Made by a program: the position numbers and the translations under genes
The notes under the pieces: generated by a model
Database searches by the model: none
Told to the model about the DNA's origin: nothing
Seen by the model: only the letters and a program-made list of their open reading frames with translations
Assembly: GCF_900130035.1 (NCBI RefSeq)
Contig: NZ_FQXQ01000002.1
Span: 1-64,000, forward strand
Reading direction: 5' to 3'
Length of the DNA: 64,000 bases
From: Wenyingzhuangia marina
GTDB taxonomy: Bacteria; Bacteroidota; Bacteroidia; Flavobacteriales; Flavobacteriaceae
Part shown: positions 122 through 40,758 of the stretch, one piece after another
Layout of the letters: the number at the start of each line of letters is the position of its first letter
How positions within the stretch are numbered: the stretch's first letter is position 1

Positions 122-171
122 ATAAATAATACTTAATTAAACAATCGGTTGTTTAGTTAAGTATTATTTGT
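122..171. repeat. Long near-perfect palindrome centred on the unit 1 operator
   Basis: The two arms pair around a centre between 146 and 147. From 124 to 169 every position is complementary except two T-G pairs (137/156 and 145/148). One more T-G pair (123/170) and an A-T pair (122/171) extend it. The inner 12 bases are the putative LacI-type operator. As RNA it would form a long hairpin and could also help terminate the upstream transaldolase transcript, but no clear T-run follows. Confidence 0.7.
141..152 (+). promoter_or_regulatory. Putative LacI-family operator, unit 1
   Basis: The sequence is ACAATCGGTTGT, a 12-base near-palindrome with a central CpG, as is common for LacI-family operators. 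The same word recurs upstream of other units in the window (15488, 40620, 40747), with variants at 26049 and 31608. Here it overlaps the predicted -33 TTG (149-151) of the promoter for the GH95 operon. That position would let a bound repressor block RNA polymerase. Confidence 0.7.
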
Positions 172-178
172 ATATTTG
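149..178 (+). promoter_or_regulatory. Predicted Bacteroidota promoter for unit 1
   Basis: A TTG at 149-151 and TATATTTG at 171-178 match the Bacteroidota -33 (TTG/TTTG) and -7 (TAnnTTTG) elements, separated by 19 bases. The same arrangement is found upstream of the first SusC gene. If used, transcription would start near 183-186 and leave a leader of about 175 bases before the GH95 start. Confidence 0.6.
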
Positions 179-358
179 ATAATATAATTAATTTTTTATT
201 TAGTTATATTGTAAAATATATAGTATTTAGTTAGTAATTATTAGAGACTGCTATTTTTATAGTGGTCTCTATCTAATTAAACAAGGTAAAGTCATATGTT
301 TTTTTAAAAGTGTAAAAACAACACTTTGAAAAGTATCGAATTAAAAAAGAGAATAATA

Positions 359-2821
359 ATGGTGAAAAGTTTGATGAATATAGTTTTGTTTTTATCGTTT
401 GCAAATATATTTTGTCAAGGATCTGAGGATTTAAAGTTATGGTATAAAACTTCTTCAGGAAATATTTGGGAAAATGCTTTGCCAATAGGTAATGGTTTTC
501 AAGGAGCAATGGTATATGGAAATGTAGAGAAAGATATTTTTCAATTAAACGAAGGAACTGTTTGGAGCGGAAGTCCAAATAGAAACGATAACCCAAATGC
601 TTTGGAGGCATTACCAAAAGTTAGAGAGCTTATTTTTAAAGGTGAATATAAAGCTGCTGAAAACTTAGCAAATGAGAAAATAATCACCAAAAAATCTCAC
701 GGACAAATGTTTCAGTCTGTAGGGAATTTGGAGTTAACATTTACAGATCATGAAAATTATTCTAATTATTACAGAGAATTAGATATTGAAAATGCTATTG
801 CTAAAACTACTTATAATGTTGATGGAGTAACATATACTCGAGAAGCTTTTACTTCTTTTCAAGATAGAGTTATGATTATAAAACTTTCGGCAGATAAACC
901 AAATAAATTATCTTTTTCAGCATCACTTACTAGTAAACATGTTAAGCAAGAAATTAAAGTTAATGGCAAAAATGAACTTTCACTTTGGGGAACTACAAGT
1001 GATCATGAAGGTGTTGAAGGAAAAGTTAAATTTAATGCACTTGCCAGAATAAAAACGGATGGTGGTAATATCACAAAATCTGCTAATACAGTAAATATTA
1101 AAAATGCTAATTCTGTTACTATACACGTCTCCATTGCTTCTAATTTTAATAATTATAAAGATATAAATGGAGATGAAAATCAGCGAGCTAAAGATTATAT
1201 GAATAAAGCTTTCGATAAGAATTTTGAAATTATGAAGGCTCAACATATTGCTGCTTATCAAAAGTATTTTAACCGTGTGAAACTTGATTTAGGTACTACA
1301 GATGCTTCTAAATTGCCAACTGATGAACGACTTAAAAAATTTAATGATACAGAAGATCCATCATTTGTTACTTTATACTATCAATACGGTAGGTATTTAT
1401 TAATTTCTTCTTCACAGCCAGGTGGACAACCAGCAAACTTGCAAGGTATTTGGAACGGAAGTATGAAGCCAGCATGGGATAGTAAATACACCATTAATAT
1501 TAATACAGAAATGAATTATTGGCCAGCTGAGAAAACCAATCTTTCTGAAATGCATGAGCCACTTTTAAAAATGATTATGGAACTTTCCGAAACAGGAAAA
1601 GAAACAGCAAAAGTCATGTACGATGCCGATGGTTGGTTAGCGCATCATAATACTGATATATGGAGAATAACAGGTCCCGTTGATGGTTCTTTTTGGGGAA
1701 TTTGGAACGGTGGAGGAGCTTGGTTAAGTCAACATTTATGGGAACATTATTTATATACTGGAGATAAAATGTATCTAAAATCTGTATACCCTGCAATTAA
1801 AGGTGCTGCAGAATTTTATGTTGATTTTTTAGTAGAACATCCAAAATATAAATGGTTGGTAATTGCACCGGGAAATTCTCCTGAAAATGCTCCAGAAGAA
1901 CATCAAAGAGCTTCTATAACAGCTGGATCAACCATGGATAATCAACTTGTTTTTGATGTTTTTAGCACAACTATTAACGCTGCTAAGGCATTAGGAGAGG
2001 ATAAAGAATTAATTGAAAAACTAGAAGGATTAAAGAAAAGGTTACCGCCTATGCAAATAGGTAAACATAACCAGTTGCAAGAATGGTTAGATGATGTTGA
2101 TAGTCCAACAGATAATCATCGACATATTTCACACTTATATGGATTGTATCCTTCTAATCAGATTTCGCCATATAACAACCCTAAACTTTTTGCTGCAGCA
2201 AAAAACACATTATTACAAAGAGGAGATGTTTCTACAGGTTGGAGCATGGGCTGGAAAGTAAATTGGTGGGCAAAAATGCAAGATGGAAATCATGCATATC
2301 AATTAATTAAAAACCAGTTAATGCCGCTTGGTTCTGTTCGTGGTGGTGGCGGTACTTATAATAACCTTTTTGATGCACATCCACCTTTTCAAATTGATGG
2401 TAACTTTGGTTGTACTTCTGGAATTACAGAAATGTTAATGCAAAGTTCAGATGGAGCAGTACATTTAATACCGGCTTTACCAGATAATTTTAAGAATGGT
2501 ATGATTAGTGGATTAAAGACAAGAGGTGGTTTTACCATTGATAATATGATATGGGAAAATGGTAAGTTAACTTCTGTAAAAATCACATCAACTTTAGGAG
2601 GCAACTTAAGATTAAGAACACCTAATGAAATCAAATCGAAATCAGGAAAAAAACTTAAAAAAGCATCTGGTGAGAATAAGAATGATTTTTTTGTAGTTAG
2701 TGAAATTAAAGAGCCTATCATTTCTAAAGATTCTGATATTCAACCAATACAATTAAAAAGAACATTTCTATACGATATACCTACTCAAAAAGGTAGATCT
2801 TATACTTTTAAAATGAAATAG
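359..2821 (+). CDS. GH95 glycoside hydrolase (alpha-L-galactosidase or alpha-L-fucosidase)
   Basis: The protein has 820 residues from the ATG at 359; upstream in-frame codons only offer a TTG. The start MVKSLMNIVLFLSF is a signal peptide ending near CQG. The GH95 N-terminal signature GNGFQGAMVYG is present, followed by NINTEMNYWPAE (about 378-389), whose Asn residues assist catalysis in the family, PGNSPENAPEE (about 503, likely general acid Glu), HRHISHLYGLYPS (about 587) and QIDGNFG (about 678, catalytic Asp). GH95 enzymes act on terminal alpha-L-fucose or alpha-L-galactose. In a complex xylan locus, alpha-L-galactosidase acting on side-chain caps is the better guess, by analogy with the Bacteroides ovatus glucuronoarabinoxylan system. 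It is probably periplasmic and the first gene of a long operon behind an operator-bearing promoter. Confidence 0.88.
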   Translation: MVKSLMNIVLFLSFANIFCQGSEDLKLWYKTSSGNIWENALPIGNGFQGAMVYGNVEKDIFQLNEGTVWSGSPNRNDNPNALEALPKVRELIFKGEYKAAENLANEKIITKKSHGQMFQSVGNLELTFTDHENYSNYYRELDIENAIAKTTYNVDGVTYTREAFTSFQDRVMIIKLSADKPNKLSFSASLTSKHVKQEIKVNGKNELSLWGTTSDHEGVEGKVKFNALARIKTDGGNITKSANTVNIKNANSVTIHVSIASNFNNYKDINGDENQRAKDYMNKAFDKNFEIMKAQHIAAYQKYFNRVKLDLGTTDASKLPTDERLKKFNDTEDPSFVTLYYQYGRYLLISSSQPGGQPANLQGIWNGSMKPAWDSKYTININTEMNYWPAEKTNLSEMHEPLLKMIMELSETGKETAKVMYDADGWLAHHNTDIWRITGPVDGSFWGIWNGGGAWLSQHLWEHYLYTGDKMYLKSVYPAIKGAAEFYVDFLVEHPKYKWLVIAPGNSPENAPEEHQRASITAGSTMDNQLVFDVFSTTINAAKALGEDKELIEKLEGLKKRLPPMQIGKHNQLQEWLDDVDSPTDNHRHISHLYGLYPSNQISPYNNPKLFAAAKNTLLQRGDVSTGWSMGWKVNWWAKMQDGNHAYQLIKNQLMPLGSVRGGGGTYNNLFDAHPPFQIDGNFGCTSGITEMLMQSSDGAVHLIPALPDNFKNGMISGLKTRGGFTIDNMIWENGKLTSVKITSTLGGNLRLRTPNEIKSKSGKKLKKASGENKNDFFVVSEIKEPIISKDSDIQPIQLKRTFLYDIPTQKGRSYTFKMK

Positions 2822-2855
2822 AAAAATATCAATACTATAAACCAAAACATTATAA

Positions 2856-15487: not shown

Positions 15488-15499
15488 ACAATCGGTTGT
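15488..15499 (+). promoter_or_regulatory. Putative LacI-family operator, unit 2
   Basis: This is an exact copy of ACAATCGGTTGT in the 223-base gap between units 1 and 2. It is followed 68 bases later by the GH43 start. A weak -7-like TATTTTCG lies just upstream at 15471-15478, so here the operator would cover the start region rather than the -33 box. Confidence 0.65.
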
Positions 15500-17295: not shown

Positions 17296-17304
17296 TTATT
17301 AAAT

Positions 17305-18717: not shown

Positions 18718-21402
<2,685 letters not shown>

Positions 21403-22599: not shown

Positions 22600-23757
<1,158 letters not shown>

Positions 23758-23767
23758 TAAAAAAGAA

Positions 23768-24658: not shown

Positions 24659-24676
24659 AATTTTATAAAAGGAACA

Positions 24677-25930
24677 ATGTCTAAACATTACAAAGTCAAT
24701 GAAATAAAATTAATGCTTACTGTATTTGTTTTATGTTTTAATGTGTCTTTTTCTCAAAACAAAGAGTTAAAACCAACATATAGAAACCTTTTTCTTGAAG
24801 CAGGATATAATAAAAAAGCGATACAAGAAAAGTTGTCTAAAGCATATTCGGATTTGTTTGAAGGACCAAATAGAATTTATTTTAAAGTAGAAGATTCTTT
24901 AGGATATGTATCAGATATTAAGAACAAAGATATTAGAACAGAAGGAATGTCCTATGGAATGATGGTTGCTGTTCAGTTAGATAAAAAAGAAGTTTTTGAT
25001 CGTATTTGGAGGTTTTCAAAAACGTATTTACAACATCAAACAGGTCCTAGGAAAGGATATTTTGCATGGAGTTTTAATCCTAAAACCATGAAACAAAACT
25101 CACCAGGATCGGCTTCTGATGGCGAGTTGTATTATGTGACAAGTCTTTTGTTTGCTGCTAATAAATGGGGAAACGATACTGGAATTAATTATTACAAAGA
25201 AGCTAGAAAAATTTTAGATGCTATGTGGGAAAAAGATGGTACAGGTAATATTTATCATCTTATAAATTTAAAACACAAACAAATTAGTTTTGTTCCAGAG
25301 GGTAAATCGTATCATTGGACGGATCCTTCATATCATTTACCTGCTTTTTATGAAATTTGGGCAACGTATGCTAAGGATGGTCATGATGATTTTTACAGAG
25401 CATGTGCAGATACATCTAGAGTATTTTTACATAGGGCAACACATCCTGTAACTGGATTGAATTCTGATTATACAGAGTTTAGTGGAAAACCACATCCTAC
25501 ACCTTGGATGCCTCCCGGATTTAGATATGATTCTTGGCGTGTACCTATGAATATTGCCATGGATTATGTTTGGTATGGGAAAGATAAATCTTGGCAAGAA
25601 GGTTATGCTAAACGATTTCAAAATTTTTTAAGATCTAAAGGTTTAGATACTTATGAGGATCAATTTAATTTAGATGGTTCTAAACCTGAATTTATTTTAC
25701 AAGCAGGTACTGTAAAAAAATTAAGACATTCTATAGGCTTGGTTTCTACAGCAGCTACTACTTCTTTAATTAATAAGGAGAAGGGGAGTTTAGATTTTGT
25801 TCATGCGATATGGGATGCTAAACTAGAACCTTATGAAGATGGATATTTTGATCCTTATTATGATGGTTTATTATATCTTTTTAGCTTGATGCAATTAAGT
25901 GGTAATTATCAAATAATAACTCCACAATAA
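24677..25930 (+). CDS. GH8 reducing-end xylose-releasing exo-oligoxylanase-like
   Basis: The protein has 417 residues. The start ATG is preceded by an AAAAGGA-like ribosome site, and the signal peptide ends near VSFSQ. The (alpha/alpha)6 barrel carries RTEGMSYGMMVAVQL (general acid Glu near 89), SASDGELYYVTSLLFAAN (about 146) and LNSDYTEFSGKP (likely base Asp near 264). The sequence resembles Rex enzymes (EC 3.2.1.156), which take single xylose units from the reducing end of xylo-oligosaccharides, rather than GH8 cellulases. A periplasmic role on imported xylo-oligosaccharides is likely. It is the last gene of unit 3 and is followed by a terminator. Confidence 0.85.
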   Translation: MSKHYKVNEIKLMLTVFVLCFNVSFSQNKELKPTYRNLFLEAGYNKKAIQEKLSKAYSDLFEGPNRIYFKVEDSLGYVSDIKNKDIRTEGMSYGMMVAVQLDKKEVFDRIWRFSKTYLQHQTGPRKGYFAWSFNPKTMKQNSPGSASDGELYYVTSLLFAANKWGNDTGINYYKEARKILDAMWEKDGTGNIYHLINLKHKQISFVPEGKSYHWTDPSYHLPAFYEIWATYAKDGHDDFYRACADTSRVFLHRATHPVTGLNSDYTEFSGKPHPTPWMPPGFRYDSWRVPMNIAMDYVWYGKDKSWQEGYAKRFQNFLRSKGLDTYEDQFNLDGSKPEFILQAGTVKKLRHSIGLVSTAATTSLINKEKGSLDFVHAIWDAKLEPYEDGYFDPYYDGLLYLFSLMQLSGNYQIITPQ

Positions 25931-26048: not shown

Positions 26049-26060
26049 ACAATCAGTTGT
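26049..26060 (+). promoter_or_regulatory. Variant operator upstream of the LacI gene
   Basis: The word is ACAATCAGTTGT, one base from the common form, with the central CpG changed to CpA. It lies about 170 bases before the regulator start and suggests weaker autoregulation. Confidence 0.55.
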
Positions 26061-29247: not shown

Positions 29248-29259
29248 TATTTATGAATA

Positions 29260-31527
29260 TTATTTTACGGTAATTATAGTTTCTGCCATTGTTGACGCTC
29301 CTAATTCAACACTACGTTTCATAGGGCTAGAACCTCCAATGTAAATATTAAATTCTCCTGATTCAATAGTACTAGATCCATCATTTTTAATAATTTCAAA
29401 ATCTTCAGGAGTCAACTCAAAAACAATTTTTTTAGAATGTTCTGCCTTTAAGTGAATTCGTTTGGTTTTGATAAGTTTAAAATTAGGTACAGTTACAGAA
29501 GCTTTTTTATCTGAAATATAAACTTGAACAACTTCATCAGCATTTATTTTACCTGTGTTTGTAATATTTACTTCAACATTAACATTTTCTTTTTTAGATA
29601 TTGATGATGAAGAAGCTTTTATGTTGTTGTAATTAAAAGTGGTGTAGCTCAATCCAAATCCGAAAGGATATAATGGATCTACATCCATGTATTTATAAGT
29701 TCTTCCTTTCATTGCATAGTCATCAAAAGCAGGTAGCTGATCTATAGATTTTGGAAAGGTAATAGGTAATCTTCCTGAAGGAGAAACTTTTCCAAAAAGA
29801 ATATCAGCCACTGCAGTACCTCCTTCTTCACCAGGATACCAAACAAATAATACAGCATCAGCTAGTGCTTGTACTTCTGAAAGATTTATAGCACTACCAC
29901 CTGTAATAACTGCTATAATAGGTTTTTTGTCTTCAGGATTTTTATCAGCTGTTTTTCTTAATTCTTTTAGATAATCAATTTGATTTTTTGGCAAACTATA
30001 GCTTAAAATATCACCAGCAGTATCGGAATCTAAAGAATCTCCCTCTTCACCTTCTAGTTGACTAGAAACGCCTAAAACAACAATAGTAACATCACTATTT
30101 CCTGCATGGGCTGTTGCATAATTTATAGGGTTTATAGAAGGTTTGTTTAGCATAGCTCCTAGTCTGTACTGTAATTGACTGGTTGGTTCGATAGCTTTAC
30201 TAACTCCTTCTAAAATAGTAACCATATTAGGGTTAACTCCATAGTAATTTCCTAACAATATTTCTATACTAGCAGCATTTGGACCTGTAACAAAGTATTT
30301 TGATAGATCGTTTTTTAGAGGTAAAATTCCATTGTTTTTTAGAAGAACAATACTTTTTTGAGCAGCTTCTTTAGATAATTCTCTATGCTTTTCACTATTT
30401 ACTACTTCAAAAGGAATGTTATCGTATGGATTGCTTCCCACAGGATCAAATAATCCTAATTTAAATCTTGTTTTTAGCAGAGTAGCTAATTGTTCATCTA
30501 TTTCCTTTTCAGTAATCATTCCTAACTTAACAGCTTCACTAAGTGATTCGTATGTAACTCCACAGTTTAAGTTAACCCCAGTTTTTATAGCCAATGCAGC
30601 AGCTTCTGCAGCGGTTTGTACTCTTCCATGACCACCTTCATTAGGTTGATTGTATAAATCTACCAACGCCCAGCAATCAGAAACAACATGTCCTTTAAAA
30701 TTCCAGGTATTTCTTAAAACATCATCTATTAAATAGTTATTACTACAACATGGCTCTCCGTTAGTGCTATTATATGCACACATAATAGATTCAACATTGG
30801 CATCCACTAATGCTTTAAAAGCAGGTAAATAAGTTTCCCACAAATCTTTTTGATTTACTTCTGCATTAAATTCATGTCTTAATTTTTCAGGCCCACTATG
30901 TACAGCAAAGTGTTTGGCACAGGCAGCTGTTTTTAAATAATTAGGATGATCACCTTGTAAACCTTTTACAAAAGAAACACCTAGTATAGATGTTAAATAT
31001 GGATCTTCTCCGTAAGTTTCCTGCCCACGTCCCCAACGAGGATCTCTAAAAATATTGATGTTAGGTGTCCAAAAAGTCAACCCATTGTATTGTTTATGAT
31101 ATCCTTTTTTACTAGTGGCATTGTAAATAGCTCTAGCCTCATCTGATATGGCCGATGACACTCTATAAGCCAAATCTGGATCAAAAGTAGCACCCAAACC
31201 TATCGCTTGTGGAAAAACTGTGGCAGCACAAGAACGTCCTACTCCATGTAATGCTTCGTTCCAATAATCATAAGCGGGTATCCCTAGCCTTTTTATTTCT
31301 GGAGTTCCATTCATCATCTGTGCAGCTTTTTCTTCTAGAGTAAGTCTAGAAATTAAATCTTCAACTCTTGCATCTATGGGCTTTGAAGGATTTTTAAATA
31401 AAAGTGAATCTGTATACACATGATCACTTTTTGTATCTTTTTCAGTCTTATTGCTGTCTGTTTTACACGAGGATACCAAGATTGATCCTATGCATAAAAT
31501 AAAGATTTTGAAAATGTTTTTCTTCAT
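29260..31527 (-). CDS. GH3 lipoprotein, probable xylan beta-xylosidase
   Basis: The protein has 755 residues with a lipoprotein signal (ILVSSC, Cys near 21). The GH3 barrel shows RDPRWGRGQETYGEDPYLTS, KHFAVHSGPEKLRHEF and HVVSDCWALVDLYNQ, in which the Asp is the expected nucleophile. The C-terminal alpha/beta domain (GGSAINLSEVQ) and a fibronectin-like end follow. There is no PA14 insert, unlike the GH3 at 7745. Membrane anchoring and a separate promoter suggest a different place of action from the other GH3. It is the first gene of a leftward unit whose upstream region holds a variant operator. Confidence 0.87.
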   Translation of the reverse strand: MKKNIFKIFILCIGSILVSSCKTDSNKTEKDTKSDHVYTDSLLFKNPSKPIDARVEDLISRLTLEEKAAQMMNGTPEIKRLGIPAYDYWNEALHGVGRSCAATVFPQAIGLGATFDPDLAYRVSSAISDEARAIYNATSKKGYHKQYNGLTFWTPNINIFRDPRWGRGQETYGEDPYLTSILGVSFVKGLQGDHPNYLKTAACAKHFAVHSGPEKLRHEFNAEVNQKDLWETYLPAFKALVDANVESIMCAYNSTNGEPCCSNNYLIDDVLRNTWNFKGHVVSDCWALVDLYNQPNEGGHGRVQTAAEAAALAIKTGVNLNCGVTYESLSEAVKLGMITEKEIDEQLATLLKTRFKLGLFDPVGSNPYDNIPFEVVNSEKHRELSKEAAQKSIVLLKNNGILPLKNDLSKYFVTGPNAASIEILLGNYYGVNPNMVTILEGVSKAIEPTSQLQYRLGAMLNKPSINPINYATAHAGNSDVTIVVLGVSSQLEGEEGDSLDSDTAGDILSYSLPKNQIDYLKELRKTADKNPEDKKPIIAVITGGSAINLSEVQALADAVLFVWYPGEEGGTAVADILFGKVSPSGRLPITFPKSIDQLPAFDDYAMKGRTYKYMDVDPLYPFGFGLSYTTFNYNNIKASSSSISKKENVNVEVNITNTGKINADEVVQVYISDKKASVTVPNFKLIKTKRIHLKAEHSKKIVFELTPEDFEIIKNDGSSTIESGEFNIYIGGSSPMKRSVELGASTMAETIITVK

Positions 31528-31607: not shown

Positions 31608-31619
31608 ACAACCGATTGC
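31608..31619 (-). promoter_or_regulatory. Putative LacI-family operator between divergent units 4 and 5
   Basis: Read on the minus strand it is GCAATCGGTTGT, one end base from the common form and with the central CpG kept. It sits 81 bases before the GH3 start and 105 bases before GH67. It could control both directions. The TCGG half points toward the GH3 unit, as it points toward the gene at all other sites. Confidence 0.6.
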
Positions 31620-31723: not shown

Positions 31724-33880
31724 ATGAATAGATTAATACTGAGACAGTTTTTGCTATTAACTTTATGTTTTGTTAGTGGCAATGTTTTTTCAAATAATGG
31801 TTATAAACTATGGTTACAATATAATTTTGTTGAAGATAGTAAGTTAAGAGAAGAATATAAAGTAGGATTAAACTCAATTTTTTTTGCTGGAAATTCAGAA
31901 ACTGTAAAAGTTGCATCAAAAGAGTTGATGTTGGGACTTTCTGAAATGCTAGGTGAGGAGAACTTTAAAAACAATAAGTGGAATTCTCAATTAGTATGTG
32001 CTTCAGAAGCTTTTCTTAACCATGAATTGAAAAAACTGTTGAAAAGTGAATTAGAAGAAATCAATGATGAAGGATTTGTTCTTAAAACTTTCATGGTTCA
32101 TGGTAAGCAAAAAACAGTAATTACAGGAAAAACAGATATTGGAACCATGTATGGTGTATATCACTTCTTAAGGTTATTACAGACTCATCAATCTATCAAA
32201 CAGTTAAATGTTATAGAGTCACCAAAAATAAAAGTTCGTGTATTAAATCACTGGGATAATTTAGATAGAACCGTGGAAAGAGGGTATGCAGGGTTTTCTA
32301 TTTGGGATTGGCATCGTTTGCCAGATTATATAGATCAGAGATATATTGATTATGCTCGTGCCAATGCATCTGTAGGAATTAATGGAGTAGTATTAAATAA
32401 TGTAAATGCCAATGCACTTATTTTAACTCCTTTTTATTTAGAAAAAGTAAAAGCATTGGCTGATGTATTTAGACCTTATGGAATAAAGGTGTATTTAACA
32501 GCTCGTTTTTCTGCTCCAATAGAAATAGGTGATTTAAAAACTGCAGACCCACTTGATAAGAATGTTATTCAATGGTGGAATAAAAAAACTGAAGAAATTT
32601 ATAAGATGATTCCTGATTTTGGAGGATATCTTGTAAAAGCAAATTCAGAAGGACAACCAGGACCACAAAATTACGGAAGAAATCACGTAGATGGTGCTAA
32701 TATGTTAGCAGATGCATTAGCCACATTTAAAGGAATTGTAATGTGGAGAGCTTTTGTGTATTCTGAACATGATGTAACCGATAGAGCCAAACAAGCATAT
32801 AGTGAATTTGTCCCTTATGATGGACAGTTTAAAAAGAATGTAGTTGTTCAAGTAAAGAATGGAGCTATCGATTTTCAACCTAGAGAACCTTTTCATCCTA
32901 TGTTCGGAGCTATGCCTAAAACTCCTTTAATGATGGAGTTTCAGATTACCCAAGAATATTTAGGACAAAGTACACATACTGTGTTTTTACCAAAGTTATT
33001 TGAGGAAGTTTTACACGAAGATACTTATGTAAATGGAAAAGGATCTATTGTAGCCAAAGATGTTGACGGCTCATTACACGGAGATAAATTAACAGGAATT
33101 GCTGGTGTTAGTAATATCGGAAATGATATTAATTGGACAGGAAATGTAATGTTACAAGCTAATTGGTATGGATATGGTCGTTTGGCTTGGAACCCTTATT
33201 TATCTTCTGGAGAAATTGCAGATGAGTGGTTACGTTCAACTTTTTCTAATGATAAAAAATTTGTAGAACCTGTAAAAGAAATGTTATTAGATTCTAGGGA
33301 AGCTGTAGTGAATTACATGACACCTTTGGGATTACATCACATAATGGCCACAGGACATCATTATGGGCCTGGACCATGGGTATCTAATCTTTCTAGACCA
33401 GAATGGAATCCGGTTTATTATCACAAAGCAGATGAAAATGGTGTTGGTTTTGATCGTACAAAAACCGGAAGTAATGCGGTAGCACAATATGCTCCTGAGG
33501 TAGCAAAAATGTATGGAGACATTAAAACCTGTCCTGAGGAATATTTATTGTGGTTTCATCATGTTTCTTGGGATTATAAATTAAAAGATGGAAATGTACT
33601 TTGGGATGGAATAGCATTAAAGTATCAAGAAGGAGTAGAGGAGGTAAAGTCTATGAAAAAGACATGGCAGAAGATGAAACCTTATGTTGATGATGAGCGT
33701 TTTAAAGAAGTAAATATGTTCTTAGATATACAACTAAAAGAGGCTAAATGGTGGAGAGATTCATGTTTGTTATACTTCCAGCAATATTCAAAAAAAGAAC
33801 TACCTGTAGGAGTTGATAAGCCAGAACATACATTGGAGTATTATAAATCATTAAAATTCCCTTTTGCACCAGGAAACTAA
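31724..33880 (+). CDS. GH67 alpha-glucuronidase
   Basis: The protein has 718 residues with a signal peptide ending near NVFSN. The N-terminal alpha/beta domain (about 25-155) precedes a barrel with VLNHWDNLDRTVERGYAG, KANSEGQPGPQNYGRNH (general acid Glu near 307), VQVKNGAIDFQPREPFHPMF (catalytic Asp near 383) and EFQITQEYLGQSTH (Glu near 411). These match the GlcA67A triad of Glu and Asp/Glu. GH67 removes (4-O-methyl)glucuronic acid from the non-reducing terminal xylose of oligosaccharides and complements the GH115 next door. It is probably periplasmic. It is the first gene of unit 5. Confidence 0.93.
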   Translation: MNRLILRQFLLLTLCFVSGNVFSNNGYKLWLQYNFVEDSKLREEYKVGLNSIFFAGNSETVKVASKELMLGLSEMLGEENFKNNKWNSQLVCASEAFLNHELKKLLKSELEEINDEGFVLKTFMVHGKQKTVITGKTDIGTMYGVYHFLRLLQTHQSIKQLNVIESPKIKVRVLNHWDNLDRTVERGYAGFSIWDWHRLPDYIDQRYIDYARANASVGINGVVLNNVNANALILTPFYLEKVKALADVFRPYGIKVYLTARFSAPIEIGDLKTADPLDKNVIQWWNKKTEEIYKMIPDFGGYLVKANSEGQPGPQNYGRNHVDGANMLADALATFKGIVMWRAFVYSEHDVTDRAKQAYSEFVPYDGQFKKNVVVQVKNGAIDFQPREPFHPMFGAMPKTPLMMEFQITQEYLGQSTHTVFLPKLFEEVLHEDTYVNGKGSIVAKDVDGSLHGDKLTGIAGVSNIGNDINWTGNVMLQANWYGYGRLAWNPYLSSGEIADEWLRSTFSNDKKFVEPVKEMLLDSREAVVNYMTPLGLHHIMATGHHYGPGPWVSNLSRPEWNPVYYHKADENGVGFDRTKTGSNAVAQYAPEVAKMYGDIKTCPEEYLLWFHHVSWDYKLKDGNVLWDGIALKYQEGVEEVKSMKKTWQKMKPYVDDERFKEVNMFLDIQLKEAKWWRDSCLLYFQQYSKKELPVGVDKPEHTLEYYKSLKFPFAPGN

Positions 33881-33893
33881 TAATAAAGATAAA

Positions 33894-36794
33894 ATGAAGA
33901 TATATATTATAAAAAATAGATTATTTGTTTTAACACTGTTAATGCTGTTTTTAGTGGTAGATAATGTTAGAGCAACAACCACTCAGCAATATGTTATTAA
34001 TAAAGAGACCAATAATACTTTTCCATTAGCAACCAAAGGTAAAGTAGTTTCTATGATAATTGGGGATCATGATTATAAAGGAGTAAAACGTGTAGCTACT
34101 CATCTTCAGCAAGACCTTTTTAAAGTTACCAATGTTTTGCCTAAAATTTATGATTCTAATTCAAAAAACGAAGAATACATATTAATTATTGGAACTCTAG
34201 GAAAAAGTGAAATCATAAATAAACTTGTAAAAGAAGGAAAGATTGATGGAACTCAGTTAAAGGGAAAATGGGAGAAATTTATTACTCAAATTATTGAAAA
34301 TCCAATTAAAGGAGTAAAAAAAGCATTAGTAATTGCTGGTTCAGATAAAAGAGGAACTATTTATGGTATGTACAATTTATCTGAGCAAATAGGAGTTTCC
34401 CCTTGGCAATTTTGGGCAGATGTTCCTGCTAAAAAGCAAACAGAATTACATGTATTACCAGGAGTACATTCATTAGGAGAGCCTAAAGTAAAATATCGTG
34501 GAATTTTCATCAACGATGAAGCACCAGCACTAACAGGTTGGGCAAATGAAACCTTTGGAGGATTTAATTCTAAATTTTACGAACATGTATTCGAGTTAAT
34601 TTTAAGGCTAAAAGGGAATTATTTATGGCCAGCTATGTGGGGAAATAAATTCTATGTTGATGATCCTAAAAATGGAGAACTGGCTGATGAATATGGAATT
34701 GTGATGGGGACTTCTCATCATGAACCTCTAACAAGGGCTCATGCAGAGTGGAATAAAAATATTAATGGAGCATGGGACTTTAATACCAATGCAGAAGGTT
34801 TGAATTCTTTTTGGAAAAAAGGAATGGAGCGTATGGGGGATAGAGAAACCCTTGTAACTATTGGTATGAGAGGTGATGGAGATGAGCCAATGACAGAAGG
34901 TACTGCTATAGAATTGTTAGAAAACATCGTAAAATCACAGAGAAATATTATAAAAGAAGTTACGGGAAAACCTGTAGAAGAGACACCTCAGATATGGGCA
35001 CTTTATAAAGAAGTTCAGGAATATTACGACAAAGGGATGAAAGTTCCTGATGATGTAACACTTTTATTGTGTGATGACAATTGGGGGAATTTAAGAACTC
35101 TTCCTAGTTTAGATGCAGCTCCTAGAAAAGGAGGCTATGGGATTTATTATCACTTTGATTACGTTGGTGGACCAAGAAGTTATAAATGGATCAATACAAA
35201 TCAAATTGAGCGAACATGGGAACAAATGCACTTGGCATATGAACATGGAGTAGATCAAGTTTGGATTGTTAATGTGGGAGATATCAAACCAATGGAATTA
35301 CCAATATCTTTCTTTTTAGATTACGCATGGAATCCTAACGATTGGACAGCTGATAACTTAAAAGATTATTATGTTTTATGGGCTGAGGATAATTTTCCGA
35401 AAAAATTTAAGAATGAAATAGCAAACCTTTTAAAGTTGTATACAAAATATAATTCTAGAAGAACTCCTGAATTGTTAGATCAAAATACTTATAGTTTATT
35501 GCATTATAACGAGGCTGAAAAAGTAACTAATGATTATAAAAAACTTGCAGATAAGGCTATAAAAATAAATGAAAATTTAAAACCTGAATATAAAGACGCC
35601 TTTTATCAGTTGGTATTGTATCCAATTTTAGCAAGTGCTAATTTACAAGAACTGTATCTATATGTTGCCAAAAATTATTTATACGCAAAACAAGGAAGAG
35701 TAGCAACCAATAAATATGCTGAAAAAGTTAAAGAATTATTTAACAAGGATGCTGAATTAACAAAATATTACCATAACCAAATGGCTAATGGTAAGTGGAA
35801 CCATATGATGTCTCAAACTCATATAGGTTATAGAATTTGGAGTGATCCAAAAGAAAATATTCTTCCAAAGACTAAGACCATTCAAGTTGAAAATATTTCT
35901 GATATTGGAGTAGCTGTTGAAGGTTCTGATAAGTGGTGGCCAAATAATTTAGAAAAAGTAATGTTACCAACTTTTACAACCACAGGAAGTGATCTTTATT
36001 ATTTTGAAATTTTTAATAGAGGTAATAAACCTTTTGATTTTAAAATTAAGTCAAAATCAGAATTGATAAACTTATCTAAAACCAAGGGAACAATTACAGA
36101 TCAGGAGAGAATTAAGGTTTCTGTGAACTGGAAAAAAGTTCCTGAAGGGATAAGCAAAGGAGAATTTATTTTAGAAGCTAATGGAAAGAAAATACCTGTT
36201 TATATAGAAATTAATAATATAGATTTAAGTAAGGCTAAAGGTTTTGTAGAAAACAAAGGTATTATATCTATCAATGCATCTAGTTTTTTAGAAAAAAGTG
36301 AACCAGAAAACTTTACATGGGAAATTATAGATAATTTAGGGAAAACCAATTCAGCTGTAATTTCTTTACCAATAAAAAAAGGAAGAGTAGCTTTAAGTAA
36401 TACTTCTCCTAAACTATCTTATCCAGTTTATTTTACAAACAAAGGAAAAGTTAAAGTACATATGTATTTTGCTCCAACTATTAATTATAGATCAACAGAA
36501 GGAATGTATTATGGACTCTCTTTTGATAATCAAGACCCAGTAAAAGTAAATTATAGTTCTGAGCCTAATACTTTTAATTACAACGGAAAAGTACCACAAA
36601 ATTGGCATCAAAATGTATCCGATCATGTGAAGATAATAACTACAGAACTTGAAATTAATAAAGAAGGAAATCATACCTTAAACTACTATAGAGTTGATGA
36701 GGGATTGGTACTTCAAAAAATAGTGATAGAAACAAAAGATAGTCAATTAAAAGAATCTTATTTAGGTCCAAAAGAAAGTATTAAAATAAATTAA
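33894..36794 (+). CDS. GH115 xylan alpha-1,2-glucuronidase
   Basis: The start is placed at the ATG at 33894 (MKIYIIKNRLFVLTLLMLF, signal peptide ending near VRA). An in-frame ATG at 33864 would overlap GH67 and displace the signal. The protein has 966 residues. The GH115 core shows KYRGIFINDEAPALTGWANE, LRLKGNYLWPAMWGNKFYVD, GIVMGTSHHEPLTRAHAEW, MRGDGDEPMTEG and LLLCDDNWGNLRTLP. The C-terminal beta-rich part (about 650-966) is usual for the family. GH115 enzymes remove (methyl)glucuronic acid from internal as well as terminal xylose units. Together with GH67 it would cover all uronate positions. Confidence 0.92.
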   Translation: MKIYIIKNRLFVLTLLMLFLVVDNVRATTTQQYVINKETNNTFPLATKGKVVSMIIGDHDYKGVKRVATHLQQDLFKVTNVLPKIYDSNSKNEEYILIIGTLGKSEIINKLVKEGKIDGTQLKGKWEKFITQIIENPIKGVKKALVIAGSDKRGTIYGMYNLSEQIGVSPWQFWADVPAKKQTELHVLPGVHSLGEPKVKYRGIFINDEAPALTGWANETFGGFNSKFYEHVFELILRLKGNYLWPAMWGNKFYVDDPKNGELADEYGIVMGTSHHEPLTRAHAEWNKNINGAWDFNTNAEGLNSFWKKGMERMGDRETLVTIGMRGDGDEPMTEGTAIELLENIVKSQRNIIKEVTGKPVEETPQIWALYKEVQEYYDKGMKVPDDVTLLLCDDNWGNLRTLPSLDAAPRKGGYGIYYHFDYVGGPRSYKWINTNQIERTWEQMHLAYEHGVDQVWIVNVGDIKPMELPISFFLDYAWNPNDWTADNLKDYYVLWAEDNFPKKFKNEIANLLKLYTKYNSRRTPELLDQNTYSLLHYNEAEKVTNDYKKLADKAIKINENLKPEYKDAFYQLVLYPILASANLQELYLYVAKNYLYAKQGRVATNKYAEKVKELFNKDAELTKYYHNQMANGKWNHMMSQTHIGYRIWSDPKENILPKTKTIQVENISDIGVAVEGSDKWWPNNLEKVMLPTFTTTGSDLYYFEIFNRGNKPFDFKIKSKSELINLSKTKGTITDQERIKVSVNWKKVPEGISKGEFILEANGKKIPVYIEINNIDLSKAKGFVENKGIISINASSFLEKSEPENFTWEIIDNLGKTNSAVISLPIKKGRVALSNTSPKLSYPVYFTNKGKVKVHMYFAPTINYRSTEGMYYGLSFDNQDPVKVNYSSEPNTFNYNGKVPQNWHQNVSDHVKIITTELEINKEGNHTLNYYRVDEGLVLQKIVIETKDSQLKESYLGPKESIKIN

Positions 36795-36806
36795 AATATC
36801 ATAAGT

Positions 36807-37928
36807 ATGAAAATAATAAAAAACTCTCTACTCTTAGCAACAGCTTTAGCGATAGGAATTGGCTGTAAAAGTAGCAACAATAAAGCATCAGAAGAATTAA
36901 CATTAAAAGATGCCTATAAAAATAGATTTTACATAGGTACTGCTATGAGTAGACCTCAAATAGAAAATCTTAAATCTGAAGAAACCTCTCTAATTGCTAA
37001 AGAATTTAATAGTATTACGGCAGAGAATATTATGAAATCTATGTTTTTACATCCTGAGGAAGATGTTTTTAGTTTTGAAACATCCGATAAATATGTTGAT
37101 TTTGGGGTGAAAAATAACATGTTTATTCATGGTCATACATTAATATGGCACAGTCAATTAGCACCATGGTTTAGAGCTAAAAAAGATAGTCTTGAAATGA
37201 GTGTTGCTATGGAAAATCATATAAAAACAATTGTAGAACACTATGACGGTAAAATAGATTCATGGGATGTTGTAAATGAAGCATTAAATGAAGATGGAAC
37301 TTTAAGAAAATCTGTTTTTTTAAATACTATTGGGGAGGACTATTTACCTATGGCATTTAAATGGGCATCTGAAACAGATCCTAATGTAGATTTGTATTAT
37401 AATGACTATAATTTAACAGACACGGAAAAAAGAAAAGGTGCAATTCGTTTAATTAAACAAATTCAAGATAAAGGAGTTAAGATTGATGGAGTAGGTATGC
37501 AAGGACACTGGCATTTAAATAGACCTTCTTTAGAAGTAATAGAACAAAGTATTTTAGATTATGCTGCTCTTGGAATAAAAGTTGCTGTAACGGAATTAGA
37601 CATTAGTGTATTACCAGACCCTTGGGGATTACAAGGAGCAGAAATCAGTCAAAGATTTGAGAATAATGATAAAATGAATCCATATCCAAAGGCGTTGCCT
37701 GATTCTATTCAAACAAAATTAGCAAATAGATATAAAGATATCTTTAAGTTATTCTTAAAGCATCAAGATAAAATTAGTAGAGTTACTTTTTGGGGAATTA
37801 GCGATAAACAAACGTGGTTGAATGATTTTCCAATAAAAGGAAGAACCAATTATCCGTTACTTTTTGATAGAGAATTAAAACCTAAAAAAGCTTTTCATAC
37901 TCTTGTTGAATTGACAAAAGAAAATTAA
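36807..37928 (+). CDS. GH10 endo-xylanase lipoprotein
   Basis: The protein has 373 residues with a lipoprotein signal (IGIGC, Cys near 20). The single GH10 barrel has FNSITAENIMKSMFLHPEED, HGHTLIWHSQLAPWF, SWDVVNEALNEDG (acid/base Glu near 156) and VAVTELDISVLP (nucleophile Glu near 263). It cuts internal beta-1,4-xylosyl bonds. Being without an extra domain and grouped with glucuronidases and an inner-membrane symporter, it may act on already imported oligosaccharides rather than on the surface. The surface role more likely falls to the GH10 at 51860. Confidence 0.92.
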   Translation: MKIIKNSLLLATALAIGIGCKSSNNKASEELTLKDAYKNRFYIGTAMSRPQIENLKSEETSLIAKEFNSITAENIMKSMFLHPEEDVFSFETSDKYVDFGVKNNMFIHGHTLIWHSQLAPWFRAKKDSLEMSVAMENHIKTIVEHYDGKIDSWDVVNEALNEDGTLRKSVFLNTIGEDYLPMAFKWASETDPNVDLYYNDYNLTDTEKRKGAIRLIKQIQDKGVKIDGVGMQGHWHLNRPSLEVIEQSILDYAALGIKVAVTELDISVLPDPWGLQGAEISQRFENNDKMNPYPKALPDSIQTKLANRYKDIFKLFLKHQDKISRVTFWGISDKQTWLNDFPIKGRTNYPLLFDRELKPKKAFHTLVELTKEN

Positions 37929-37950
37929 GATTAACAATTAAATATAAAAC

Positions 37951-39408
37951 ATGAGTACTATATCAGAAAAACTATCCATTAAAGAAAAAATTGGATATAG
38001 TTTAGGTGATCTCGCTGCCAATTTGGTTTTTCAAACCTTGATGACTTATTTGGCTTATTTTTATACTGATATCTATGGACTTAAAACTAGCCATGCTTCA
38101 GTAATTATGCTAACAGTAGGTCTTATTGCTGCATTTGGTTTTAATCCTATTATTGGTGCTTTGGCAGATAGAACAGTTTCTAAATGGGGAAAATTTAGAC
38201 CTTGGATATTATGGACAGCCGTTCCTTTGGGTGTAGTTGCTTTGTTAGCTTTTAGTACCCCTAATTTTGATTACAAAGGAAAGGTGATTTATGCTGTGGT
38301 AACATACACTTTATTGTTGTTATTGTATGCTGCAAATAATCTACCATACTCTGCTCTAAGTGGTGTAATTACAGGAAACATGTCAGACAGGAATAGTTTG
38401 TCTTCTTATAGATTTGTTGGAGTAATGTTTGCCCAATTCTTTGTGCAAGTATTTATGTTACCAATTATAGAGACTGCAGGTGGTGGTGATAAAGCCGTAG
38501 GAATTGAAATTGTTATGACTTGGTTGGCAATCATAGGTACGGTAATGTTACTTATAACTTTTGTTACTACAAAAGAACGTATTGTTCCCAAACCAGAACA
38601 AAAATCTAGTGTTAAAGAAGATTTAGGAGATTTGTTTAAGAATAAACCTTGGGTAATCATACTTGCAGTAACGGCTATGGTTTTTGTTACATTAGCTATG
38701 AAAGGAGGAGCTTATGTTTATTACTTTGAAAACTATGTTGATAAAACAGCATTAACAAGTTTTATTCAACCCATATTAGGTTTTTTATCATCTATAGGCG
38801 TTAATTTCTTTGGAGAAAATCCAGTTTCTGCTGGTTTTGGTTTGTTTAATGCAGGAGGAATTATTTTTATGATTATCGGTATAACCATATCAAAAAGCTT
38901 TGCCGATAAGTACGGAAAAAGGGATGTGTTTAGAGTTGCATTGTTTATATCTACTTTGTTTATTCTGTTTTTTTATTTATTCCCTTCAACTTCTGTAGAA
39001 TTAATATTTGCCTCTCAAATATTACATGGTTTTTTCTATGGATTAACCATTCCTCTACTATGGGCAATGATTGCAGATGTAGCAGATTATTCTGAATGGA
39101 AAAATAATAGAAGAGCGACAGCAATTATTTTTTCGGCAATGATGGTTGGATTAAAAGGAGGCTTAAGTATTGGTAGTGCTTTACTAACCTATATTTTAGG
39201 ATTGTATGGATATGTAAGTAAGGAAGCATCTATAGTAGGACAAGAAATTGTACAACCAGAGAGTGCTATTCATGGTACAAAAATGTTGGTAAGTATTTAT
39301 CCTGCTATACCTTTTTTAATATGCATAGGATTATTGTTTTTCTATGAAATTAATAAAACTCTAGAAATAAAAATCGAGTCAGATTTAAAAGAAAGAAGAC
39401 TTCAGTAA
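37951..39408 (+). CDS. GPH-type sugar:cation symporter (MFS)
   Basis: The protein has 485 residues with about 12 hydrophobic segments and no cleavable signal. The N-terminal KIGYSLGDLAANLVFQTLMT and ALADRTVSKWGKFRPWILW are typical of the glycoside-pentoside-hexuronide family that includes melibiose and xyloside transporters. It would carry xylose, xylobiose or other short products across the inner membrane with Na+ or H+. It lies between the GH10 gene and a signal-less GH43, which points to uptake of small oligosaccharides followed by cytoplasmic hydrolysis. Confidence 0.9.
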   Translation: MSTISEKLSIKEKIGYSLGDLAANLVFQTLMTYLAYFYTDIYGLKTSHASVIMLTVGLIAAFGFNPIIGALADRTVSKWGKFRPWILWTAVPLGVVALLAFSTPNFDYKGKVIYAVVTYTLLLLLYAANNLPYSALSGVITGNMSDRNSLSSYRFVGVMFAQFFVQVFMLPIIETAGGGDKAVGIEIVMTWLAIIGTVMLLITFVTTKERIVPKPEQKSSVKEDLGDLFKNKPWVIILAVTAMVFVTLAMKGGAYVYYFENYVDKTALTSFIQPILGFLSSIGVNFFGENPVSAGFGLFNAGGIIFMIIGITISKSFADKYGKRDVFRVALFISTLFILFFYLFPSTSVELIFASQILHGFFYGLTIPLLWAMIADVADYSEWKNNRRATAIIFSAMMVGLKGGLSIGSALLTYILGLYGYVSKEASIVGQEIVQPESAIHGTKMLVSIYPAIPFLICIGLLFFYEINKTLEIKIESDLKERRLQ

Positions 39409-39452
39409 TTACTGAAGTAGACGAAAATATTATAATATAAAAATAGATTAAA

Positions 39453-40472
39453 ATGCCAGAAGAAAGTATAGAAAATATAGATTTTGAGACATTAAATAAA
39501 ACAGCAATTTCTAAGCCCCTTGTGACCCACATGTATACAGCAGACCCCTCTGCACATGTGTTTAATGGTAAAATATATATTTATCCATCACATGATATAG
39601 ATGCTGGAATTCCATTTAATGATAATGGAGAGCATTTTGGTATGGAGGATTATCATGTAATTTCAATGGATGATATTAACTCTGAGGCAGTTGATAATGG
39701 TTTAGCTCTTCATGTGAATGAAGTACCATGGGCAGAAAAACAAATGTGGGCACCTGATGCCGCATACAAAGATGGAAAGTATTACTTAATCTTTCCTGCT
39801 AAAAATAAAGAAGGAATTTTTCAAATAGGAGTAGCTACTAGTACCTCTCCAACTGGTCCTTTTTTAGCGGAACCTGAACCTATAAAAGGAAGTTATAGTA
39901 TAGATCCTGCTGTGTTTAAAGATAATGATGATTCGTATTATTGTTATTTTGGAGGGATTTGGGGAGGACAATTACAGAATTATAGAAATAATAACTATTC
40001 TTCAAATTACGATTTACCTAAATCAAACGAACCTGCGCTAGGACCTATTGTGGCTAAAATGTCTGAAGATATGTTACAGTTTGCAGAAGAGCCTATAGAA
40101 ATAAAGATTCTTGATGAAAATGGAGATCCATTGTTGGAAGGAGATAATAATAGACGTTATTTTGAAGGTCCTTGGATGCATAAATATAAAGGGAAATATT
40201 ATTTTTCTTATTCAACAGGAGACACACATTTGATTTGTTATGCAATAGGAGATAGTCCATATGGGCCTTTTACTTATAAAGGTGTTATTTTGAATCCAGT
40301 AGTAGGGTGGACTACGCATCATTCTATTTGTGAAATAAATAACAAATGGTATTTATTTTATCACGATTCAAGCTTGTCTAAAGGAGTAACACATTTACGT
40401 TCTATTAAGGTTGCAGAGATCACTTATAATGATGATGGAACTATAAATACTTTAGACCCTTATTTGATTTAA
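39453..40472 (+). CDS. Cytoplasmic GH43 beta-xylosidase/arabinofuranosidase (GH43_1-like)
   Basis: The protein has 339 residues. Its N-terminus (MPEESIENIDFETL) has no signal peptide, unlike every other glycosidase here, so it is probably cytoplasmic. Motifs are MYTADPSAHVFNGKIYIYPS (base Asp near 30), YSIDPAVFKDND (Asp near 152) and RYFEGPWMHKYKGKYYFSYS (acid Glu near 239). The wording matches GH43_1-like enzymes. It would cleave xylobiose or arabinoxylo-oligosaccharides delivered by the adjacent symporter. It is the last gene of unit 5 and is followed by a very strong terminator. Confidence 0.88.
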   Translation: MPEESIENIDFETLNKTAISKPLVTHMYTADPSAHVFNGKIYIYPSHDIDAGIPFNDNGEHFGMEDYHVISMDDINSEAVDNGLALHVNEVPWAEKQMWAPDAAYKDGKYYLIFPAKNKEGIFQIGVATSTSPTGPFLAEPEPIKGSYSIDPAVFKDNDDSYYCYFGGIWGGQLQNYRNNNYSSNYDLPKSNEPALGPIVAKMSEDMLQFAEEPIEIKILDENGDPLLEGDNNRRYFEGPWMHKYKGKYYFSYSTGDTHLICYAIGDSPYGPFTYKGVILNPVVGWTTHHSICEINNKWYLFYHDSSLSKGVTHLRSIKVAEITYNDDGTINTLDPYLI

Positions 40473-40534: not shown

Positions 40535-40619
40535 CTGTTTTTTAAGTAGTTCTTTATTTAAACAAACTTTGTTTTTGTGATAATGTATATTTTTAGTTTT
40601 TTTTTAATAAAAAACTAAA

Positions 40620-40631
40620 ACAATCGGTTGT
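40620..40631 (+). promoter_or_regulatory. Putative LacI-family operator 1, SusCD operon
   Basis: Exact ACAATCGGTTGT; the palindrome extends to TAAAACAATCGGTTGTTTTA (40616-40635). It overlaps the predicted -33 TTG at 40628-40630. Confidence 0.7.
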
Positions 40632-40657
40632 TTTATTGAATTTAATTAATATATTTG
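40628..40657 (+). promoter_or_regulatory. Predicted promoter of the SusCD operon
   Basis: TTG at 40628-40630 and TATATTTG at 40650-40657 are separated by 19 bases. This is exactly the arrangement at the unit 1 promoter, including the operator overlap. The implied leader to the SusC start is about 310 bases. Confidence 0.62.
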
Positions 40658-40746
40658 ATGTAAATTAGTAAGTGTGGCAATTACACATATAATTGATTAG
40701 GAATTGACAACCTAAGTTAAACTATTAATTTTTTCAATCAATAAGA

Positions 40747-40758
40747 ACAATCGGTTGT
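40747..40758 (+). promoter_or_regulatory. Putative LacI-family operator 2, SusCD operon
   Basis: A second exact ACAATCGGTTGT, 127 bases downstream of the first and inside the transcribed leader. Two sites at this distance could support a DNA loop or a roadblock. Confidence 0.65.

What the first reader, a model, noticed from the sequence alone, without database searches (positions are those of the whole stretch)
141..40758. A repeated LacI-type operator (ACAATCGGTTGT) marks the units of the whole locus
Seen: exact copies at 141, 15488, 40620 and 40747, and one-mismatch forms at 26049 (CAG centre) and 31608 (minus strand, GC- end). All but the LacI site precede a glycan gene unit, and none was noticed inside a gene. 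Established: LacI-family proteins bind such palindromes with a central CpG. Inference: the LacI protein at 26232 controls the 55 kb locus as one regulon. Bacteroidota glycan loci are more often run by hybrid two-component, AraC or sigma/anti-sigma systems, so a LacI-run SusCD xylan locus stands out.
Basis: partly seen in the sequence, partly recalled or inferred. Interest (0 to 1): 0.75.

Follow-up and report, generated by a model that had tools for sequence, protein, structure and literature searches.

The report
LacI repressor regulon for xylan use
A short repeated DNA word sits in the promoters of a flavobacterium's xylan-eating gene set and of a sugar-phosphate enzyme gene, and comparison with related genomes strongly suggests that one sugar-sensing switch protein encoded in the middle of the set holds them all off until xylan sugars arrive.

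Summary
ACAATCGGTTGT occurs exactly at 141, 15488, 40620 and 40747, with one-mismatch copies at 26049 and 31608. All six are intergenic, where only 5% of the locus is intergenic. The rest of the 3.24 Mb genome has one more exact copy, 112 bp upstream of a transketolase gene. One-mismatch words elsewhere are at chance level.

In 32 Flavobacteriaceae-type genomes with an orthologue of the LacI protein at 26232, 60 of 119 RCAATCGGTTGY words lie within 20 kb of lacI (about 1.4 expected). They precede susC, GH67, GH43, MFS, lacI and transketolase genes.

An exact flavobacterial -7 box (TAnnTTTG) lies 18-19 bp beyond the word at 22 of 94 intergenic sites read, against 14 boxes over all 48 other offsets. 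At those sites the operator covers the -33 region, which points to a repressor.

Best explanation: a LacI-family repressor, probably relieved by xylose or a xylo-oligosaccharide, runs one regulon from outer-membrane uptake to pentose-phosphate enzymes. Binding, effector and sign of control are untested. LacI-run xylan systems are known elsewhere, so this is a new member of a known kind.

The parts
141..152 (+). operator ACAATCGGTTGT (exact), upstream of the GH95-GH127-GH43-GH43-GH3 genes; centre of a longer imperfect palindrome (about 124-169)
171..178 (+). predicted -7 box TATATTTG, 18 bp after the operator at 141
   Evidence: consensus TAnnTTTG from a passage of PMC9723704
326..15344 (+). 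unit 1: GH95, GH127, GH43, GH43, GH3-PA14, GH43-CBM6, GH97, GH43-CBM6 (314-bp gap without operator at 10364-10677)
15488..15499 (+). operator ACAATCGGTTGT (exact), upstream of the GH43-GH43_C2 gene and its followers; no exact -7 box at 18-19 bp
15568..25930 (+). unit 2: GH43-GH43_C2, GH30-like, esterases (SASA/Esterase), alpha/beta hydrolase in two ORFs, GH8
26049..26060 (+). operator variant ACAATCAGTTGT, 171 bp upstream of lacI (presumed autoregulation)
   Evidence: exact word 166 bp upstream of the orthologue in L045
26232..27296 (+). LacI/GalR-family regulator, 354 aa (P0001), the presumed repressor
27310..31527 (-). unit 3: GH3 and SASA-esterase genes on the minus strand, divergent from GH67
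31608..31619 (-). operator variant GCAATCGGTTGT between the divergent GH3 and GH67 genes; 18 bp further towards GH67 lies TATTTTTA (31638-31645), one letter off TAnnTTTG
31724..40472 (+). unit 4: GH67, GH115, GH10, GPH-type MFS symporter, GH43 with no signal peptide seen by eye (presumed cytoplasmic)
40620..40631 (+). operator ACAATCGGTTGT (exact), first of a pair upstream of susC; -7 box TATATTTG 18 bp beyond it at 40650-40657
40747..40758 (+). operator ACAATCGGTTGT (exact), second of the pair, 127 bp downstream of the first; no exact -7 box at 18-19 bp
   Evidence: a pair 154 bp apart in L045
40947..54983 (+). unit 5: SusC, SusD, SusC-like, SusD, DUF5627 protein, GH10, GH5
3..95 (+). end of a probable transaldolase/fructose-6-phosphate aldolase gene cut by the contig end; the first 95 nt recur at the start of contig C9
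   Evidence: (83-87% to the gene after tkt in L169, L149, L184); its 30 residues alone gave no Pfam match

Best explanation
RCAATCGGTTGY is the operator of the LacI-family protein encoded at 26232-27296. In the absence of inducer a LacI dimer sits on the word. Where a -7 box can be recognised at the preferred distance, the word covers about -42 to -31, so its GGTTGY half overlaps the -33 region and RNA polymerase is kept off. Intracellular xylose or a short xylo-oligosaccharide, brought in by SusCD and the GPH symporter and trimmed by the presumed cytoplasmic GH43, releases the repressor. The units of the xylan locus, lacI itself, and an operator-linked tkt gene that handles xylulose-5-phosphate are then expressed together. 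Shown here: places, conservation with the regulator, promoter geometry at a part of the sites, gene content. Inferred: binding, repression rather than activation, effector, and any joint action of the paired sites at susC.
For: Own genome: 5 exact copies in 3.24 Mb, all intergenic, 4 in this locus and 1 lying 112 bp upstream of tkt. Orthologue genomes: 119 words against 39 for the pattern read backwards (table, summed by me); 60 of 119 within 20 kb and 78 of 119 within 50 kb of lacI (expected about 1.4 and 3.6). 31 of 32 genomes with the orthologue have a word against 210 of 365 sampled family genomes without one. Intergenic words precede lacI, susC, GH67/GH3, MFS, GH43, GH95, GH11-CBM60 and CBM4_9-TIG genes in relatives. 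lacI orthologues lie within the same 14-20 kb stretch as GH67 in 16 of 19 and as xylA/xylB in 8 of 19 stretches. An exact -7 box 18-19 bp beyond the word at 22 of 94 intergenic sites, against 14 boxes over the other 48 offsets; 20 of 87 after near-identical flanks are merged, and 0 of 32 in-ORF sites. The recognition-helix stretch ATSTISR is identical in the five orthologues aligned at 70-80% identity. Operator-linked tkt recurs.
Against: No binding or expression data. 72 of 94 intergenic sites lack an exact -7 box at 18-19 bp; in the own genome only 141 and 40620 (and the C5 palindrome of another LacI cluster) have one, while 15488, 26049, 31608, 40747 and the tkt site do not. With one mismatch allowed the in-ORF sites show 1 and 5 boxes of 64 at 18 and 19 bp, a small excess at 19. 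Four Confluentibacter loci (about 70% LacI identity) have no intergenic word next to lacI or GH67; in the two whose contigs match G336 and G139 by length a word lies about 18 kb away before a susC gene, the other two were not followed. G137 has the orthologue and no exact RCAATCGGTTGY. Own xylA/xylB lack the word. Another LacI cluster (C5, 42% identical) has the near-identical palindrome ACAATCGATTGT. A paper on a Rhodothermales bacterium reads its LacI proteins as activators from co-induction (PMC7409140, passages).
Confidence: 0.85

Rival explanations
1. The LacI protein binds these words but acts mainly as an activator, or as a dual regulator, of the xylan genes.
For: LacI genes next to hemicellulase clusters were read as activators in Roseithermus from co-induction (PMC7409140, passages). 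Most sites, among them 15488 and 40747, have no exact -7 box at the preferred distance.
Against: The one preferred geometry covers the -33 region with the -7 box 18-19 bp away, where a bound protein should block polymerase; LacI-family activation typically uses sites upstream of that region (recalled).
Confidence: 0.1
2. Another regulator of the same genome, such as the hexuronate-type LacI on contig C5 whose cluster has ACAATCGATTGT, is the real or joint owner of the words.
For: The genome has 10 LacI-type HTH genes. The C5 gene (42% identical) is the last of a row with three TRAP-transporter genes, which faces KduI and dehydrogenase genes across a perfect palindrome with the same core and a -7 box at 18 bp.
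Against: Across genomes the words cluster at orthologues of the 26232 gene, and the key helix residues differ between the two proteins (ATSTISR against NSSTVSR). Clustering at orthologues of the C5 gene was not tested.
Confidence: 0.06
3. The words are part of promoters or hairpins shared by this locus (for example copied promoter DNA or terminators) and not operators.
For: Site 141 is the centre of a long imperfect palindrome (C3:124-169 matches its own complement at 91%) just after a gene end; the word contains TTG, as a -33 box would (recalled).
Against: The flanks of the other window sites show no such long arms (by eye) and differ from one another, and the words go with the lacI orthologue across genera; a mere promoter element would not.
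Confidence: 0.03

Closest known systems
LacI-family xylose/xylan control in Xanthomonas and Caulobacter (XylR type)
   Same: Palindromic box upstream of TonB-receptor and xylose/xylan genes, with xylose/xylan induction: passages of PMC1790865 report a 20-bp palindrome of the Caulobacter xylose regulon also found upstream of Xanthomonas xylose genes and two TonB-receptor genes. [quoted passage not shown]
   Different: Different phylum from Xanthomonas/Caulobacter, SusCD pairs, and an operator placed on a TAnnTTTG-type promoter. Their operator letters were not seen and orthology of the proteins was not tested.
Gramella flava xylan loci
   Same: Flavobacterial xylan loci with susCD, GH10, GH67, GH43 and a lacI gene, xylA/xylB and a xylose transporter downstream of one; some of these genes rise 2.3- to 89.6-fold on xylan (PMC5306329, passages and legends).
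   Different: In the passages seen, lacI was only labelled; no operator, promoter geometry or regulon was described.
beta-1,3-xylan loci surveyed in PMC12125979
   Same: The legend of its Fig. 7 lists LacI regulators, XylA, XylB, Tal and Tkt among genes of such loci, most of which are in Bacteroidota (passages). So LacI and Tkt/Tal near Bacteroidota xylan loci have been drawn before.
   Different: The regulator studied there (XylRA, in Vibrio) has an AraC-type DNA-binding domain; no LacI operator was seen in the passages.
Bacteroides LacI regulators UxaR, UxuR, KdgR, UxmR
   Same: Bacteroidota LacI-family regulators of sugar catabolism predicted by comparative genomics (PMC3878776 table; PMC4052901 passages).
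   Different: They are assigned to uronate pathways; B. thetaiotaomicron XylR is an NrtR-family protein.
Hybrid two-component or ECF-sigma/anti-sigma xylan loci of Bacteroides
   Same: Control of xylan genes in the same phylum (review PMC10766802, abstract and passages).
   Different: Membrane sensing; no such gene was found among the 34 window proteins scanned.

Membership tests
LacI/GalR transcription factors | N-terminal LacI HTH domain (PF00356) above the curated cut-off | tested here: met
   38.5 bits against 27, residues 8-53
LacI/GalR transcription factors | Periplasmic-binding-protein-like sensor domain | tested here: met
   PF13377, 106 bits; solved relatives CcpA, PurR, RbsR
LacI/GalR transcription factors | Even palindromic site with central CG | tested here: met
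   RCAATCGGTTGY is an imperfect even palindrome with central CG, if it is this protein's site; the rule is from PMC4052901 (passage). The own lacI site at 26049 has CA instead of CG
LacI/GalR transcription factors | Binds the site and is released (or held) by a small effector | not testable with these tools
   needs gel shift or calorimetry
A named LacI equivalog or subfamily of NCBIfam (CytR, RbsR, CcpA, PurR and others) | Score above the curated cut-off | tested here: not met
   17 families matched, all below cut-off (best CytR, 200 of 436 bits)
XylR of Xanthomonas/Caulobacter type | Orthologous protein and same operator word | not tested
   no sequence of those proteins was compared; their operator letters were not seen
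NrtR-type XylR of Bacteroides | NrtR (Nudix-related) family protein | tested here: not met
   the Pfam and NCBIfam matches of P0001 are LacI-type HTH and sugar-binding domains
SusCD polysaccharide utilization locus | Adjacent SusC and SusD genes with glycan-active enzymes | tested here: met
   two SusC/SusD pairs at 40947-50723 with GH10, GH67, GH115, GH43 and others
Hybrid two-component or ECF-sigma-run locus | Sensor/regulator of that kind in the locus | tested here: not met
   no histidine kinase, response regulator, sigma or anti-sigma match among the 34 window proteins scanned (cut-off 1e-5); such genes elsewhere in the genome were not searched

The most novel reading that the evidence does not exclude
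In one lineage of this family a single cytoplasmic LacI repressor, not a surface-sensing hybrid two-component system, controls the xylan economy from SusCD uptake to the pentose-phosphate enzymes. Its operator half-site doubles as the -33 part of a TAnnTTTG promoter, so operator and promoter can travel as one cassette that recruits new genes. In this genome the cassette seems to have captured one of two tkt-tal copies (nearly identical at the ends that could be read) while the other stayed free of it.
Probability: 0.45. Interest if true: 0.6.

Novelty: new member of a known kind. Interest (0 to 1): 0.45.

Why it matters
Bacteroidota glycan loci are usually explained by membrane-sensing activators. 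A one-component repressor with a defined 12-letter operator and a preferred promoter geometry gives a testable regulon in a group with few defined regulators, proposes new members by the word alone (GH11-CBM60, CBM4_9-TIG, tkt-tal), and suggests an inducible promoter design for flavobacteria.

Tried and rejected
One-mismatch words across the own genome: rejected as regulon members. The 13 places outside the window found (one exact, twelve with a mismatch) were read. Ten lie inside ORFs (one of them, C3:443497, at the very start of a 310-aa ORF). Three do not: the exact one before tkt, C5:143061 (the palindrome of another LacI cluster), and C1:522849, between two ORFs of 115 and 111 aa. The control word gives 25 such matches against 20.

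Site beside Confluentibacter lacI: looked for with up to two mismatches and by eye, not found in the intergenic stretches. Own xylA/xylB region and the C10 tkt promoter: no site up to two mismatches.

Terminator or hairpin reading: only site 141 has long arms. Looping by paired sites: pairs recur (127, 154, 300, 311 and 317 bp apart), but no helical rule is evident; left as a hint. No structure prediction was made; it would not decide binding.

Errors of mine: the tkt query was read one base out of frame, so its TktN hits are unreliable; tkt positions come. In one search ten sites from lacI+ genomes were counted as lacI-; one search gives the corrected grouping. Not all 119 places were read in context.

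Literature: PMC12125979, PMC5306329, PMC10766802, PMC3878776, PMC1790865, PMC4052901, PMC7409140 and PMC9723704 were seen as passages from 'find' only, none read whole. Searches listed no title or abstract beginning that describes a LacI operator for a Bacteroidota xylan locus; they cover open-licence PubMed Central only.
Full report
WHAT WAS CHECKED. The word ACAATCGGTTGT is at all places given. The window is the first 64 kb of contig C3 of a 3.24 Mb, 11-contig genome. Pfam places a xylan-type locus at about 326-54983: GH95, GH127, several GH43, GH3, GH97, GH30-like, esterases, GH8, LacI, GH67, GH115, GH10, a GPH symporter, two SusC/SusD pairs, GH10 and GH5. LacI is the only regulator matched among the 34 proteins scanned (cut-off 1e-5). 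All six sites are intergenic. Five of the six gaps longer than 150 bp in the locus carry a site; the gap 10364-10677 does not.

IS IT MORE THAN CHANCE? Exact copies: 5 in the own genome, 4 of them here; the reversed word has 2. The other 59 relatives hold 15 exact copies together. One-mismatch copies are not enriched (20 against 25 for the control), so the two variant sites stand on position and conservation. The fifth exact copy, C4:585496-585507, lies 112 bp before the ATG of a transketolase at C4:585620 (PF00456 on its first 43 residues).

DOES IT GO WITH THE LacI PROTEIN? Orthologues at E up to 1e-90 are in 32 of 397 sampled genomes of the family, own genome included. In a sample of the phylum at E up to 1e-100 all 13 of 395 genomes with a hit are of the same family, though that sample holds many members of this family. 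In the 32 genomes RCAATCGGTTGY occurs 119 times, the pattern read backwards 39 times (columns summed by me). 60 of 119 are within 20 kb and 78 within 50 kb of the lacI gene, about 1.4 and 3.6 expected if spread evenly, and 29 of 32 genomes have at least one within 20 kb. Without the own genome it is 56 of 113 within 20 kb. At least one word is present in 31 of 32 orthologue genomes and 210 of 365 others. Species of one genus are not independent, so probabilities should not be taken literally; the 32 genomes span 25 genera. Of the 15 exact-word loci in relatives other than the own genome, 12 have the word inside an ORF and 3 between ORFs; for five of those 14 genomes (G004, G038, G040, G050, G052) the orthologue was not searched for. 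Among distinct sites read in lacI+ genomes 94 are intergenic with full flanks and 20 are in ORFs, but the stretches were chosen around hits.

WHAT FOLLOWS THE WORD IN RELATIVES. In 20 orthologue loci (19 stretches, plus L045) and 38 further stretches around hits, intergenic words precede lacI, susC, GH67/GH3, GH10, MFS, GH43, GH95, GH11-CBM60 and CBM4_9-TIG genes, a dihydroxy-acid/phosphogluconate dehydratase-family gene and a mandelate-racemase-family gene. The closest named relative, a MAG with 79% LacI identity (L045), has the exact word upstream of lacI and a pair upstream of susC 154 bp apart, mirroring 26049 and 40620/40747. Other words lie inside ORFs and look like background, for example in a 1437-aa AcrB-type pump gene.

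TRANSKETOLASE. Nine single-chain tkt copies were found in 8 of 31 orthologue genomes (own genome left out). Three have the word 205, 206 and 316 bp upstream (G204, G078, G188). Two more (G156:C5, G345:C28) lie behind a GH3-PA14 gene on the same strand that has the word upstream. G090, G144, G186 and G156:C11 have no intergenic word upstream among the places; in G186 tkt and tal follow xylB and xylA and end about 14 kb before the GH95-GH127 genes. In the own genome there are two tkt starts, both at contig ends (C4 with the word, C10 without), and two ends of a probable transaldolase gene identical over 95 nt, both at contig starts (C3, followed by site 141, and C9, without a site). The gene after tkt in G204 is TAL_FSA; the 30-residue end in the window resembles it but gave no Pfam match alone. 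The simplest reading is a duplicated tkt-tal pair that broke the assembly, with the word-bearing copy leading into this locus, as the G186 gene order suggests. The bodies of the genes were not seen and the other pairing of the ends is not excluded.

HOW IT WORKS. Over 97 distinct intergenic sites with full flanks, read in both directions, exact TAnnTTTG occurs 15 times at 18 bp and 7 times at 19 bp beyond the word, and 14 times at all other 48 offsets from 0 to 49. After merging sites whose flanks are at least 70% alike it is 20 of 87 sites against 13 boxes elsewhere. The 32 in-ORF sites have no exact box at 18-19 bp and 2 at other offsets; with one mismatch allowed they have 1 and 5 of 64 at 18 and 19 bp, against 30 and 22 of 194 at intergenic sites. 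The 22 sites are in 14 genomes, 17 on the GGTTGY side and 5 on the other; one is the C5 palindrome that may belong to another LacI. The lacI- group has only 3 intergenic sites (none with an exact box), too few to compare. In Flavobacterium the sigma-A -7 box TAnnTTTG lies at -12 to -5 (PMC9723704, passage), so these words span about -42 to -31 and their TTG falls where the -33 box lies (that box is recalled). A protein bound there should exclude polymerase: hence a repressor. Sites 141 and 40620 both have TATATTTG exactly 18 bp away; 31608 has a one-letter-off box towards GH67. Sites 15488, 26049 and 40747 have none that is exact; they may act as roadblocks or auxiliary sites (inference).

EFFECTOR. 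Not tested. xylA/xylB in 8 of 19 orthologue stretches and a GH43 without a visible signal peptide behind the GPH symporter make xylose or a short xylo-oligosaccharide the likely inducer.

WHAT IS KNOWN. See Closest known systems. Some genes of the G. flava xylan loci, which include a lacI gene, rise 2.3- to 89.6-fold on xylan (PMC5306329, passages), which fits; whether that genome carries the word was not tested. LacI, Tal and Tkt are listed in a figure legend on xylan loci (PMC12125979), so their neighbourhood is not new. No operator of this kind was seen in the listings or in the passages read.

VERDICT. Observation confirmed; interpretation supported and widened; a new regulon of a known kind, with tkt-tal capture and the operator-on-promoter geometry as its most interesting parts.

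Noticed in passing
window 1-95 and own-genome contigs C4 end, C9 start, C10 start: Two tkt-tal copies, nearly identical at the ends that can be read, seem to have broken the assembly; only the C4 copy has the operator upstream.
   Followed up: partly
window 23732-24190 and 24218-24658: An alpha/beta-hydrolase (BD-FAE-like) that lies in one 306-aa ORF in G336 (L172:4967-5887) appears here as two short ORFs, so the gene may be broken.
   Followed up: no
L028 (own genome C5:137061-149072), palindrome at 6001-6012: A second LacI gene (42% identical) in a row with three TRAP-transporter genes, facing KduI and dehydrogenase genes across a perfect ACAATCGATTGT with a -7 box 18 bp away: a likely hexuronate regulon with a near-identical operator.
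   Followed up: partly
window 124-169: The operator at 141 is the centre of a long imperfect palindrome (91% self-complementary over 46 bp), which could double as a terminator for the gene ending at 95.
   Followed up: no
L152, L153, L108, L099; also G357:C7:125388/125705 and G173:C6:63783/64100: Operators come in pairs 278-321 bp apart, in the first four loci beside susC (the G357 and G173 contexts were not read); the meaning of the spacing is unknown.
   Followed up: no
window 55133-63969: After the xylan locus come an FAD-oxidase/iron-sulphur protein, a large AAA helicase and a rhamnogalacturonan-lyase-family protein with a secretion-system sorting tail.
   Followed up: no
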